This document shows, piece after piece, positions 7,939-11,179 of a stretch of 64,000 nucleotides of DNA (within the stretch, counting starts at the first letter, position 1; every line of letters starts with the position of its first letter). Source of the stretch: Bacteroidota bacterium (GTDB lineage Bacteria; Bacteroidota; Bacteroidia; Chitinophagales; Saprospiraceae); assembly GCA_016124585.1 (NCBI GenBank), contig WGNL01000013.1, positions 124,001-188,000 of the forward strand, read 5' to 3'. The notes beneath the pieces were generated by a model, which had not been told where the DNA came from, did not search any database, and saw only the letters and a list, made by a program, of their open reading frames with translations. A program made the translations under genes and the position numbers.

Positions 7939-9885
7939 ATGAGAAACCGTGCCATCATCAACAATGTAAAACCCTTACTTTCCGACGGCAATTATTACAT
8001 CAAGCGAATACCCGGTGAAGAGGTAAAAGTCACTGCAGATATTTACTGCGATGGCGATGAATTGCTAAGGGCAGCTGTCATTTATCAGCTTGTAGGTGAG
8101 GCCAATTGGCATGAAGCTAATTTGACACCAACCCAAAATGAACAATGGGAAGGAACTTTCAATGTTGAAAAAATTGGTTTTTACCACTACCGTATCGAAG
8201 CTTGGGTAGACCATCTAGCTACTTGGCACCATAGTTTCCAGTGGAAAAGCAACGCTGGCCAAAACTTAGCAAACGACTTGCTGATTGGCACTGGATGGCT
8301 GAAAAAAGCAGCTGAACAGGCCGACAAAGCCACTTCCAAATTATTACATAGTTGGGTAAAAATCATGGAAAACCCTGCTAAATACAAGGAAGCATGTGAA
8401 TTGCTTTTGAGCGAAGAAGCTAGCAAAATTTTAGGGAAGTGCCAGTTGAAATTACATCCGACCGTCTTTGACAAAAACATGCTCGTGCGTGTTGGTCGAC
8501 CTAAAGAGCTGTTTAGTACTTGGTACCTGATGTTTCCACGCTCTTCAAGTCCAATTGAGGGGCAACATGGCACCTTGAAGGATTGCAAAGCCCTTCTTCC
8601 TCGGATAGCTGATATGGGATTTGATGTGCTTTTCTTGCCACCTATTTTTCCTATTGGAAATACCAACCGTAAAGGCAAAAATAACAGTGTAGTTCATGAG
8701 CCTAACGACGTAGGCTCACCTTGGTCAGTGGGAAATGCCGATGGAGGGCACATGACTGTTAACCCTTTGCTTGGAAATATCAAAGACTTTGAGGCACTTG
8801 TAAAAGATGCCAGAAAACTTGGGATTGAACTGGCTTTGGACATTAGCCTGCGTTGCTCAGCCGATCATCCGTACACCAAGTCACACCCAGATTGGTTCAA
8901 TTTGATGCCCGACGGCCGCTTGGCAGTCGAGGAAGTACCTCCTCTGAACTATCAGGATATCGTAGATTTCAATTTTGAGTGTGACGATTGGCAAAATCTC
9001 TGGGAGGAGTTGAGAAAAATCTTCCTGTTTTGGGCTGAAAAAGGGGTAAGGATTTTCTATGCCAGCACACCTCATCATCAGCCATTTGGATTTTGGAACT
9101 GGCTAATTGTTGAAGTGCAAATGGCATACCCCGATGCCATTTTCCTCTCAGGTGCGTTTACCCGCTCAGTCATCCAAGAGGAATTGGCAAAAGTTGGTTT
9201 CAACCAATCATTCACATATTTCATTTGGCGAAATTCAAACAAAAACGATATCCAACAGTACGTTTCTGAACTGATCAACGGAGATACCAGTGAATACCTT
9301 CATCCAAATTTCTTCACTAACACCCCGGATATTTTACCCAGCTATTTGGCGCAAAAAGGAGAGAATGCGTTTTTGCTTCAATATGCTTTGGCATCCATGA
9401 TTTCATCAAATTGCGGTGTTTACGGCCCAGCGTTTGAATTGATGTACAACCAACGATTCCCTGGCAGCAAAGAGCGTTACAACCATTCTGAAAAATATGA
9501 AATTGCCAACCACGACTGGTCAAAACGAAACAAACTCACGGACTTTATTACTAAATTGAATCAAATTCGCCGTGAAAATCCTGCATTGCACAATGTTTTT
9601 AACCTCACCTTTACAGGTACTGATAATGACCATCTACTGAGCTTTGTTAGAGCAACTGACGACCGAAAGAGCATTATTTGGTGTATCATAAACCTAGATG
9701 CTGAGCACAGCCATGCTGGCTACGTTGAAGTGCCACGGGAATTACTGGGATTAAAAGGAAAGTGGTTTAATCTAGAAGTTACCGACCTGCTTACCAACGA
9801 GACATACCATTGGTTCAATGATTGGAATTTCGTCGAACTCCGTATCGACAAATATCCACTACATATCTTGAAGATGGATATTTAA
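7939..9885 (+). CDS. GlgE-family (GH13_3) protein with lost catalytic residues, probable pseudoenzyme
   Basis: 648 residues, close to normal GlgE length. GlgE transfers maltosyl units from maltose-1-phosphate to alpha-glucan. The N-terminal domain (about 1-120) and the GH13 barrel align over their whole length (ALDISLRCSADHP, NTPDIL, SEKYEI, LNQIRRENPAL). The active site does not. The family motif F-R-V-D-N-P-H-T-K-P reads F-Y-A-S-T-P-H-H-Q-P, so the nucleophile Asp (D394 in Streptomyces coelicolor GlgE) is Ser376 and the preceding Arg is Tyr374. The acid/base Glu of FLSEAFT is Gly405 in FLSGAFT; the 29-residue spacing from the nucleophile is kept. The phosphate-site segment N-P-P-K-K-Y-Q-D reads V-P-P-L-N-Y-Q-D (333-340). 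Only the third acid (D464 in NTPDIL) remains. The frame is intact with a strong promoter, so this is an expressed non-catalytic homologue rather than a decayed gene. Glucan binding or regulation is inference. No treS, mak or glgB gene is nearby. Confidence 0.85.
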   Translation: MRNRAIINNVKPLLSDGNYYIKRIPGEEVKVTADIYCDGDELLRAAVIYQLVGEANWHEANLTPTQNEQWEGTFNVEKIGFYHYRIEAWVDHLATWHHSFQWKSNAGQNLANDLLIGTGWLKKAAEQADKATSKLLHSWVKIMENPAKYKEACELLLSEEASKILGKCQLKLHPTVFDKNMLVRVGRPKELFSTWYLMFPRSSSPIEGQHGTLKDCKALLPRIADMGFDVLFLPPIFPIGNTNRKGKNNSVVHEPNDVGSPWSVGNADGGHMTVNPLLGNIKDFEALVKDARKLGIELALDISLRCSADHPYTKSHPDWFNLMPDGRLAVEEVPPLNYQDIVDFNFECDDWQNLWEELRKIFLFWAEKGVRIFYASTPHHQPFGFWNWLIVEVQMAYPDAIFLSGAFTRSVIQEELAKVGFNQSFTYFIWRNSNKNDIQQYVSELINGDTSEYLHPNFFTNTPDILPSYLAQKGENAFLLQYALASMISSNCGVYGPAFELMYNQRFPGSKERYNHSEKYEIANHDWSKRNKLTDFITKLNQIRRENPALHNVFNLTFTGTDNDHLLSFVRATDDRKSIIWCIINLDAEHSHAGYVEVPRELLGLKGKWFNLEVTDLLTNETYHWFNDWNFVELRIDKYPLHILKMDI

Positions 9886-9888
9886 AGC

Positions 9889-9925
9889 AAAAGGGGCGAT
9901 TCAGATGAAATCGCCCCTTTTTTTA
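9889..9925. terminator. Bidirectional terminator between the GlgE-like and pfp genes
   Basis: AAAAGGGGCGATT (9889-9901) pairs with AATCGCCCCTTTT (9909-9921), a 13-bp stem with a 7-nt loop. T runs follow on both strands, serving the two convergent genes. Confidence 0.9.
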
Positions 9926-11179
9926 TTAGTCTTCAATTGGTCGTAAAACCGCTGATGGTTTAAACTCCCAATTCATTAATTTATAGAAATCGAAAGCATG
10001 AGGATTTAAAAGGTATTTTTTTGCTTTTTCATAATCATTATGGTTCAAAACATGAAGGTCACTTAAAACCAATCTTGCAAATTCAGTATTGATGTCCACC
10101 AATCGAGGCGGAATCTTACCGGTCTCATCCTCAATGTCTTTCATGAAAATGGGAACAATGTCAGCCATTCTAGTAGTCGAGACAATGCACCCCTTCATAC
10201 CTTGTTCATACAGTTTTTTCACACCCATGCCCAACACTGTGCAAAGCGTCAAGTCAAAGGCCACTGGCCGGCAGCATCGCAGTTCATAACCCAGCTCTAC
10301 TGGCCGGCTTTTGATGTCAATATTAAGCTCCTTCAGTTTGCGTTGCAAAAGCACATTGATGATATGCGCCTTGCTCACGTTGCCTAATTCTGGATGTCCG
10401 TGCGCATCAAATGTGAACGTGATACCGCAATTCCGGATTACCTCTTCGTCCATGATATGAAAAACACCTTCGCTGACGATAGCCACACCGTGATCCACGT
10501 GATTGATTTTGCGTTTAATCATGGACGAGATGATCAAGTCAACTATCAGGTCTAGGGTCACATCAACCTTGTTGAACATCTCAGGGATAATGATGATGGG
10601 ATAGTGGCAACTTGCTCCAATTTCAAAAGCTAAGTGCCCGGCCGAACGCCCCATCGAGCTAATCACAAACCAGGTGCTACTGGTGCGGCTATCTTCGTAA
10701 ATGGTATTCCCAATCCTAACGCCCTCGTCCTTGGCCGAGTTGAAACCAAAAGTAGGCATGAGGTCTGGCAATGGTAAGTCGTTGTCTATGGTTTTCGGAA
10801 CGTGGATATTCTGGATATTGATGTGCTTGCTCTCCAACCACTTTGTCAGGCGGTTGCTTGAGGAAGCCGTGTCATCCCCACCAATTGTTACCAGTAGTTT
10901 GACATTGTTGTTGACAAAAAAATCAGCAGAAAACTCATGGTCCTTTGGCTTGTAACGGCTCATTCGAAGCGTTGAGCCACCTCTGGGAAAGATTCTGTCT
11001 GCGTAATGAAAATCAATGTTGACAACATCTGCATTGCCATTGAAGAGGTTTTTGAATCCATCATGAATACCAATCACATTGTATCCATCTTTCAAAAAAA
11101 CCTTGGCAATCGTGGAGATTACAGTATTGATACCTGGGGCTGGCCCGCCTGCGCAAAGTATTGCAATTGATTCTTTCAT
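9926..11179 (-). CDS. pfp: 6-phosphofructokinase, probably pyrophosphate-dependent
   Basis: 417 residues. It phosphorylates fructose 6-phosphate to fructose 1,6-bisphosphate in glycolysis. CAGGPAPGIN near the N-terminus, GGDD at 100-103, PKTIDND at 128-134 and MGRSAGHLA mark the PFK-A superfamily. The second Asp of GGDD (D103) and the Lys of PKTIDND (K129) replace the two glycines found in ATP-dependent enzymes such as E. coli PfkA. Both changes are the accepted marks of PPi use, and a PPi enzyme can also run in reverse. It is a single gene ending in a shared bidirectional terminator with the GlgE-like gene. Confidence 0.85.
   Translation of the reverse strand: MKESIAILCAGGPAPGINTVISTIAKVFLKDGYNVIGIHDGFKNLFNGNADVVNIDFHYADRIFPRGGSTLRMSRYKPKDHEFSADFFVNNNVKLLVTIGGDDTASSSNRLTKWLESKHINIQNIHVPKTIDNDLPLPDLMPTFGFNSAKDEGVRIGNTIYEDSRTSSTWFVISSMGRSAGHLAFEIGASCHYPIIIIPEMFNKVDVTLDLIVDLIISSMIKRKINHVDHGVAIVSEGVFHIMDEEVIRNCGITFTFDAHGHPELGNVSKAHIINVLLQRKLKELNIDIKSRPVELGYELRCCRPVAFDLTLCTVLGMGVKKLYEQGMKGCIVSTTRMADIVPIFMKDIEDETGKIPPRLVDINTEFARLVLSDLHVLNHNDYEKAKKYLLNPHAFDFYKLMNWEFKPSAVLRPIED

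What the first reader, a model, noticed from the sequence alone, without database searches (positions are those of the whole stretch)
7939..9885. GlgE homologue with the nucleophile, acid/base and phosphate-site residues all replaced
Seen: the protein aligns with GlgE end to end, but the nucleophile motif R-V-D-N-P-H-T-K-P reads Y-A-S-T-P-H-H-Q-P (Ser376 for Asp) and FLSEAFT reads FLSGAFT (Gly405 for Glu). The segment N-P-P-K-K-Y that holds the phosphate of maltose-1-phosphate reads V-P-P-L-N-Y. The 29-residue spacing between nucleophile and acid/base is unchanged, so this is substitution rather than misalignment. Known: in S. coelicolor GlgE these are D394 and E423. Inference: the gene is intact, with a consensus promoter and terminators on both sides, so it is kept for a non-catalytic task such as glucan binding, assembly with another glycogen enzyme, or regulation.
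Basis: partly seen in the sequence, partly recalled or inferred. Interest (0 to 1): 0.75.

Follow-up and report, generated by a model that had tools for sequence, protein, structure and literature searches.

The report
Conserved GlgE lacking its catalytic residues
A group of uncultured bacteria keeps, under strong selection, a glycogen-building enzyme whose chemical machinery has been lost while its sugar-gripping surfaces remain, which suggests an enzyme turned into a binding or regulatory protein.

Summary
Window 7939-9885 (+) encodes a full-length GlgE homologue with Ser at the nucleophile, Gly at the acid/base, and the phosphate site replaced. It is not a sequencing error: all 11 homologues found in 14 genomes of the genus read S/G, and 5 in a second Saprospiraceae genus read S or A and G or A. 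All 144 other GlgEs examined read D and E. Codon-model omega is 0.044-0.048 in the altered groups, against 0.042-0.053 in canonical sets. The donor supply is gone: a maltokinase match occurs in 56 of 57 Saprospiraceae genomes with canonical GlgE, in 0 of 16 with the altered one, in 0 of 34 without GlgE. In the window's genus, changes concentrate in the -1 and phosphate sites; the maltose -2 subsite and acceptor residues are kept. Constraint has shifted from the lid to domain C, which carries the secondary glucan site in S. coelicolor GlgE. Best reading: a lineage-conserved pseudo-GlgE, probably an alpha-glucan-binding accessory of the GlgA/GlgB system. Loss of GlgE chemistry and retention are well supported by sequence; the task is inferred. 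The claimed consensus promoter is not supported. New variant of a known kind.

The parts
7939..9885 (+). pseudo-glgE coding sequence, 648 aa
   Evidence: AlphaFold2 pLDDT 93.1; Foldseek ranks 1-15 all GlgE
7948..8496 (+). domains N and S (residues 4-186)
   Evidence: PF11896 match
8851..8853 (+). R305 in place of Gln324 (contacts O6' of the -1 sugar in GlgE)
   Evidence: R in 10 of 10 aligned genus sequences, Q in 126 of 127 canonical with 1 gap; role from a passage of PMC4526890
8935..8952 (+). V-P-P-L-N-Y (333-338) in place of the phosphate-site segment N-P-P-K-K-Y
   Evidence: role from a passage of PMC4526890
9058..9069 (+). Y374-A375-S376-T377 in place of R392-V-D394(nucleophile)-N395
9151..9153 (+). 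G405 in place of acid/base Glu423
9328..9330 (+). D464, retained equivalent of Asp480
   Evidence: 10 of 10 genus, 5 of 5 second genus, 127 of 127 canonical
9607..9876 (+). domain C (557-646, boundary set by me near the GLGE_C match 558-645), more constrained than in canonical GlgE; F631 aligns with the glucan-stacking Tyr646
   Evidence: Tyr646 role from passages of PMC5076824
7779..7804 (+). terminator-like hairpin between pnp and glgE
   Evidence: no more such sites in the region than in shuffles
9889..9921 (.). terminator-like hairpin between glgE and the convergent phosphofructokinase gene
   Evidence: found on the + strand; same caveat
9926..11179 (-). phosphofructokinase gene, convergent neighbour; adjacent or near in 7 of 10 genus genomes with informative flanks
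   Evidence: PF00365

Best explanation
This is a lineage-conserved pseudoenzyme of the GlgE family. In two Saprospiraceae genera no maltokinase, the enzyme that makes maltose 1-phosphate in this pathway, is found, and the GlgE that remains has lost its nucleophile, acid/base and phosphate-site lysine, so it should not perform maltosyl transfer by the GlgE mechanism (shown by sequence, not by assay). In the window's genus the protein keeps the fold, the maltose -2 subsite, key acceptor residues and an aromatic at the domain C secondary site. Inferred: it works as an alpha-glucan- or malto-oligosaccharide-binding accessory protein that helps place or regulate the GlgA/GlgB glycogen enzymes. Confidence is about 0.9 that it is not a GlgE-type catalyst and is retained by selection, and about 0.45 that glucan binding is the retained task; the figure given is for the whole statement.
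For: S/G in 11 of 11 genus homologues; second genus S4/A1 and G3/A2 in 5 of 5; D and E in 144 of 144 others. Omega 0.044-0.048 against 0.042-0.053 in three canonical sets. Maltokinase match in 56 of 57 canonical, 0 of 16 altered, 0 of 34 GlgE-less genomes. Of the -2 subsite side chains, K264, N268, Ser at 279, W281, D359 and K534 are kept in 10 of 10 and Y535 is Y9/F1; acceptor H397, W448 and E527 are kept in 10 of 10 and R449 is R6/K3/Q1. Of 107 near-invariant canonical columns, 75 are kept in all ten genus sequences and 17 lost in all ten; 10 of the 17 are Q324, E423 and two stretches at the phosphate loop and nucleophile. Domain C is more, and lid B less, conserved than in 2000 of 2000 matched canonical sets. 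The genome holds a GlgA (419 bits, over the TIGR02095 cut-off) and a GlgB over its cut-offs.
Against: No assay. The second genus has lost parts of the sugar-binding surface (W448 to K3/S1, W in 1; K264 to I2/F1, K in 2; N268 to F in 3 of 5), so glucan binding may not be the shared reason for retention. Three of 14 genus genomes show no homologue although all 14 hold a PF08323 (GlgA-type) domain. No glycogen or GH13 gene of the own genome has a homologue in the flanks read, with one exception: a pullulanase-type gene about 4 kb upstream in G159. Only 6 of the 17 lost columns are strictly invariant within the genus.
Confidence: 0.5

Rival explanations
1. Small-ligand sensor or regulator: the emptied catalytic pocket now binds a different sugar or sugar phosphate and signals through the dimer or a partner protein, with no glucan role.
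For: D394 to S and Q324 to R are both 10 of 10 in the genus, and both originals contact O6' of the -1 sugar, so an acidic/neutral spot became small and basic. Within the genus 16 of 23 pocket sites are invariant against 229 of 646 columns overall. The phosphofructokinase gene is near in 7 of 10 informative genomes and in 0 of 14 canonical regions read.
Against: R392 to Y/F and Q324 to R change together (both kept in 5 of 5 of the second genus), so R305 may only replace the lost arginine's charge. Of the 16 invariant sites 12 are ones that canonical GlgE also keeps. The phosphofructokinase gene is convergent, so not co-transcribed in the window, and was not found in the flanks of 3 of 10.
Confidence: 0.22
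2. New enzyme: the remodelled pocket catalyses another reaction, so the protein is neofunctionalised rather than dead.
For: Strong constraint; retained D464 and D301; one GH13 group with an aberrant triad, BmaN1, is active (PMC5347038, abstract and opening text seen).
Against: BmaN1 lost only the transition-state stabiliser; here the nucleophile and the acid/base are both gone and nothing obvious replaces them. The second genus tolerates S or A and G or A at the two positions, unlike a new catalytic pair.
Confidence: 0.15
3. Relic: the gene was left over when the pathway was lost and is decaying.
For: No homologue in three of 14 genus genomes; lid B is less constrained than in canonical GlgE.
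Against: No stop inside the matched stretch in any of the 16 genomes, five of them cut by contig ends; omega as low as in canonical relatives; domain C more constrained than in canonical relatives; at least 53% identity to the window protein kept across the genus.
Confidence: 0.03
4. Still a maltosyltransferase, using other residues.
For: D464 and the -2 subsite are intact.
Against: Phosphate-site K355, N352 and N395 are replaced, and no maltokinase was found in 16 of 16 genomes to supply maltose 1-phosphate. Another source, a GlgM-type GT4, was not searched.
Confidence: 0.03

Closest known systems
GlgE, alpha-1,4-glucan:maltose-1-phosphate maltosyltransferase (GH13_3), S. coelicolor GlgE1, PDB 3zss, 4cn1, 5lgw
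   Same: Same N/S and C domains and fold (Foldseek ranks 1-15, TM 0.81-0.88 by query length); -2 subsite, acceptor residues and Asp480 kept
   Different: Nucleophile D394, acid/base E423, R392, N395, Q324, N352 and K355 replaced; no maltokinase found in the genome
Plant isoamylase ISA2 (non-catalytic partner of ISA1)
   Same: A glucan-active enzyme type conserved without a functional catalytic site, thought to act through glucan binding (PMC12510319, abstract seen)
   Different: ISA2 works in complex with its paralogue ISA1; no second GlgE was found in these genomes
BmaN1-type alpha-amylases with an aberrant triad
   Same: GH13 group that shares a replaced catalytic residue
   Different: Only the transition-state stabiliser is replaced, and the enzyme is active (PMC5347038, abstract and opening text)

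Membership tests
GlgE (GH13_3) by descent | GlgE N/S domain plus GLGE_C domain, GlgE fold | tested here: met
GlgE (GH13_3) as an enzyme | Asp nucleophile (D394) | tested here: not met
   S376; D in 144 of 144 canonical
GlgE (GH13_3) as an enzyme | Glu acid/base (E423) | tested here: not met
   G405; E in 144 of 144 canonical
GlgE (GH13_3) as an enzyme | Phosphate site N352, K355, Y357, N395 | tested here: not met
   V, L, Y, T: only the Tyr kept (site list from a passage of PMC4526890)
GlgE (GH13_3) as an enzyme | Transition-state Asp480 | tested here: met
   D464
GlgE (GH13_3) as an enzyme | -2 maltose subsite and acceptor residues | tested here: met
   K245, N249, S260, W262, D340, K519, Y520; H379, W430, R431, E512
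GlgE pathway | Maltokinase in the genome | tested here: not met
   0 of 16 altered-GlgE genomes against 56 of 57 canonical
GlgE pathway | TreS in the genome | tested here: inconclusive
   Own genome only: of the GH13 hits, the one that spans the whole Pfam model, L071, scores 337.9 against the TreS cut-off of 678.35; the shorter GH13 hits, other than GlgB and the pseudo-GlgE, were not scanned with the TreS model, and the other genomes were not searched for TreS
GlgE (GH13_3) as an enzyme | Maltosyl transfer from maltose 1-phosphate | not testable with these tools
   needs purified protein
GlgE (GH13_3) as an enzyme | Homodimer through domain N | not tested
   only monomer prediction was available
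ISA2-like non-catalytic partner | active paralogue of the same family in the genome | tested here: not met
   one PF11896 match in the own genome; one GlgE-like gene per genome in the two genera

The most novel reading that the evidence does not exclude
In the window's genus the emptied -1 site has become a receptor for a 6-phosphorylated (or 6-acidic) glucoside, such as glucose 6-phosphate, trehalose 6-phosphate or a phosphorylated maltose. Two residues that hold O6' of the -1 sugar changed in every aligned sequence, Asp394 to Ser and Gln324 to Arg, turning an acidic spot into a small basic one, while the -2 glucose subsite stayed intact. The protein would report sugar-phosphate status to glycogen synthesis or glycolysis, in keeping with the neighbouring phosphofructokinase gene.
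Probability: 0.1. Interest if true: 0.82.

Novelty: new variant of a known kind. Interest (0 to 1): 0.6.

Why it matters
GlgE is a genetically validated tuberculosis drug target (PMC5076824, abstract), and the residues lost here are kept in 144 of 144 other GlgEs examined. A lineage that keeps the body of the enzyme under full selection after losing both its chemistry and, as far as found, its substrate supply implies that GlgE can have a second, non-catalytic function. The two genera, diverging differently around the same lost centre, give a natural experiment on what that function is, and the shift of constraint to domain C points to where to look. Annotation by domain alone would call these genes active maltosyltransferases and wrongly assign a GlgE pathway to these bacteria.

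Tried and rejected
Heteromer with an active GlgE (as ISA2 with ISA1): rejected, no second GlgE in the own genome or in the other altered-GlgE genomes.

Maltokinase test with Pfam Mak_N_cap alone (0 of 14 genus genomes): found too weak, since it gave only 30 bits on one Saprospiraceae maltokinase and no listed match on the fused TreS-Mak; repeated with alignment A1. One canonical genome, G202 (84% complete), had no match; G198 had only a 33-residue piece at a contig end and G182 two contig-end pieces, both counted as matches.

Lower model confidence at residues 331-340 (mean pLDDT 73) looked like a loosened phosphate loop; a control model of a canonical GlgE (L100) shows the same dip (71 in block 331-340, 69 in 321-330), so it says nothing.

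GT3 glycogen synthase: no PF05693 match in 33 of 33 genomes searched, so no alternative synthase of that type.

Pairwise Nei-Gojobori dN/dS in the genus: synonymous sites saturated, no value. Only the codon-model omega is used there, one fit per set, read from the logs; the unsaturated second-genus pair L170/L171 gives 0.051. The second-genus set has only 411 gap-free codons, and one planned canonical set of two sequences was skipped by the script.

First tree put one long-branch second-genus sequence beside the genus. Rebuilt without the active-site columns, with five second-genus sequences and 54 of 144 canonical ones (quick tree): each genus is one clade, and joining the two is not rejected (log-likelihood 5.87 higher, p-AU 0.688). 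One loss or two cannot be told.

Literature: no paper with GlgE and pseudoenzyme, none with Saprospiraceae and GlgE. The listings showed no title or abstract start on a GlgE without catalytic residues; passages of PMC11206854 describe a Bacteroidota GlgE locus and say nothing of lost residues. Only open-licence papers are held.

Rows dropped: L038 and L041 (two contig-end pieces of one gene, G158) were left out of column counts, though L038 reads S/G; L090-L099 are the same genus genomes again and were not counted twice. The 70 canonical sequences from genome contigs are the best 80 of 379 confirmed candidates, preselected by two peptide patterns, less the ten of the genus. The 144 may include a few genomes present in both collections.

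TreS absence was lowered to inconclusive.

Full report
WHAT IS THERE. The window lies in a 6.63 Mb, 45-contig genome (G000; completeness 100). Genus relatives in genome contigs are metagenome-assembled genomes with titles such as Saprospiraceae bacterium, so the host belongs to an unnamed Saprospiraceae genus. ORF 7939-9885 (+) is intact and 648 aa long. It matches GlgE_dom_N_S and GLGE_C over their cut-offs, but the GH13 catalytic-domain model only at 21.1 bits, under its cut-off of 22. Against solved structures by sequence it aligns with S. coelicolor GlgE1 over residues 7-644 (E 1.6e-132). The AlphaFold2 model has mean pLDDT 93.1 and pTM 0.90, and the 15 best Foldseek matches in the PDB are all GlgE (TM 0.81-0.88 by query length). 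That GlgE is GH13_3 is from a passage of PMC11206854.

THE SUBSTITUTIONS. Numbering below is S. coelicolor, from the alignment; residue roles are from passages of PMC4526890, passages and sections 7 and 9 of PMC5076824 and passages of PMC8238978. Nucleophile D394 is S376. Acid/base E423 is G405. R392 is Y374. N395 is T377. Q324 is R305. Phosphate-site N352 is V333 and K355 is L336, while Y357 is kept. D480, which contacts the -1 sugar hydroxyls, is kept (D464). So are the side chains of the -2 subsite (K264, N268, the Ser at 279, W281, D359, K534, Y535), the acceptor residues H397, W448, R449 and E527, and an aromatic at the secondary-site Tyr646 (F631).

IT IS A LINEAGE TRAIT. In the genus, 11 of 14 genomes hold a homologue and all 11 read S and G, the ten others at 53-84% identity to the window protein. 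In the ten sequences used for column counts: S 10, G 10, L336 10, R305 10, Y374 Y9/F1, T377 T9/A1, V333 V9/E1. In a second genus (g97), 5 of 6 genomes hold a homologue, with S4/A1 at the nucleophile, G3/A2 at the acid/base, and V at N395 in 5 of 5. That genus keeps R392 and Q324 in 5 of 5, but has lost parts of the sugar-binding surface (W448: K3, S1, W1). The other GlgEs examined read D and E: 57 of 57 further Saprospiraceae (73 of 398 family genomes matched, less the 16 above; sequences; count), 70 of 70 from other groups in genome contigs, and 17 of 17 from other families of the order. That is 144 of 144; K355 and R392 are also 144 of 144.

SELECTION. Codon-model omega is 0.048 for the ten genus sequences, 0.045 for six closer ones and 0.044 for the second genus, against 0.045, 0.053 and 0.042 in three canonical sets. 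Synonymous changes are saturated in the genus, so the values are rough; the closest pair in the second genus gives 0.051 by Nei-Gojobori. By this measure the protein is held as tightly as its canonical relatives.

PATHWAY LOSS. A two-sequence maltokinase profile (A1, from L063 and L061) finds a match in 26 of 26 and 30 of 31 genomes with a canonical GlgE. It finds none in 11 of 11 genus and 5 of 5 second-genus genomes with the altered GlgE, and none in 34 of 34 genomes without GlgE (3 of the genus and 5 others; 1 of the second genus and 25 others). These are not independent observations: the altered group represents at most two events, and several second-genus genomes are incomplete (64-87%). 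In the own genome the GH13 matches comprise GlgB, a pullulanase-type protein, a cyclomaltodextrinase-type protein, two proteins with secretion tails, an alpha-glucosidase-type protein with a lipoprotein-like start, and the pseudo-GlgE; the alpha-glucosidase-type one is far below the TreS cut-off. TreS was not searched otherwise. A GlgA and a GlgB over family cut-offs are present, so the classical route is likely, though GlgC was not searched.

WHERE CONSTRAINT WENT. Of 107 columns at least 98% uniform in 127 canonical sequences, the ten genus sequences keep 75 in all, lose 17 in all and vary at 15. Eight of the 17 lost columns lie in two stretches (331-336 and 374-380), and Q324 and E423 add two more. 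Compared with 2000 sets of ten canonical Saprospiraceae sequences (drawn from 55) matched in overall identity, lid domain B is less conserved than in all 2000 and domain C more conserved than in all 2000; the other domains do not stand out to that degree, though A2 is at or below 1921 of 2000. Domains B and C behave the same way when the most divergent canonical groups are left out (32 sequences, 2000 sets). The sets overlap and share ancestry, so these are not probabilities, and domain boundaries were set by me. In S. coelicolor GlgE, domain C binds glucan around Tyr646, and loss of that site lowers kcat/Km for polymer 31-fold, while the equivalent change in S. venezuelae did not affect growth (PMC5076824).

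HOW IT PROBABLY WORKS. Shown: a conserved protein of GlgE fold that lacks the residues doing GlgE chemistry, in genomes where the enzyme that makes its donor was not found. Follows from known GlgE mechanism: it should not form the maltosyl-aspartyl intermediate or protonate phosphate. Inferred: since -2, acceptor and secondary-site residues are kept in the genus, it still binds malto-oligosaccharide or glycogen, and acts as scaffold, anchor or regulator for GlgA/GlgB. Against: the second genus has lost some of these residues, so the common reason for retention may be something else, such as a surface of domain C or the dimer.

NEIGHBOURS. pnp lies upstream. A convergent phosphofructokinase gene (PF00365) is the next gene in five genus genomes (G000, G150, G154, G156, G158), tail to tail at a contig edge in G152, and with one gene between in G061: 7 of 10 with informative flanks. 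It was not found in the flanks of G157, G161 and G151; G159's contig ends too soon. It is in 0 of 14 canonical regions read. Convergent genes are not co-transcribed, so this is a weak hint. Eight glycogen or GH13 proteins of the own genome were searched against the whole window and 16 flank loci: apart from two weak partial matches of a secreted amylase's tail region in the window (30-33% over about 170 residues, 31.8-33.6 kb), only G159 gave hits, a 71%-identical pullulanase-type gene about 4 kb upstream of its glgE. In the 14 canonical regions a maltokinase or TreS-maltokinase gene adjoins glgE in three (L061, L062, L063).

LITERATURE. See Tried and rejected for the searches. The 2024 Chem Rev review (PMC11046441) was searched by terms only, in the first 300,000 characters held; the passages returned do not mention an inactive GlgE.

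Noticed in passing
L257:6731-7552 (own genome C11): A 274-aa protein holding only the N-terminal half of a GT5 glycogen synthase (PF08323, 171.8 bits), beside a full GlgA elsewhere (L256:7097-8524). PF08323 frames of 276-299 aa occur in 12 of 14 genus genomes. The Chem Rev review notes that Bacteroidetes keep a GlgA-GT5 fragment (passage): another possible pseudo-enzyme of glycogen metabolism.
   Followed up: partly
L053, L222, L223, L224: In the second genus a D12-class adenine DNA methyltransferase gene lies head to head with the altered glgE in 4 of 4 genomes with upstream flank (Pfam on L053 only); G162's contig ends at the gene.
   Followed up: partly
L172 (G163) and L173 (G162): Second-genus sequences with A/A and S/A at nucleophile and acid/base but the Asn of N-P-P kept in the phosphate loop: they look less far along than the others and may record the order of loss.
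   Followed up: no
window 9926-11179 (-): The phosphofructokinase neighbour scores best with the diphosphate-dependent model NF041103 (346 bits) but below its cut-off of 550, so its phosphate donor is open.
   Followed up: no
L083:1524-3674 (G159): A pullulanase-type gene, 71% identical to the own genome's L068:4929-7061, lies about 4 kb upstream of the pseudo-glgE in G159 only; in the own genome it is on another contig.
   Followed up: partly
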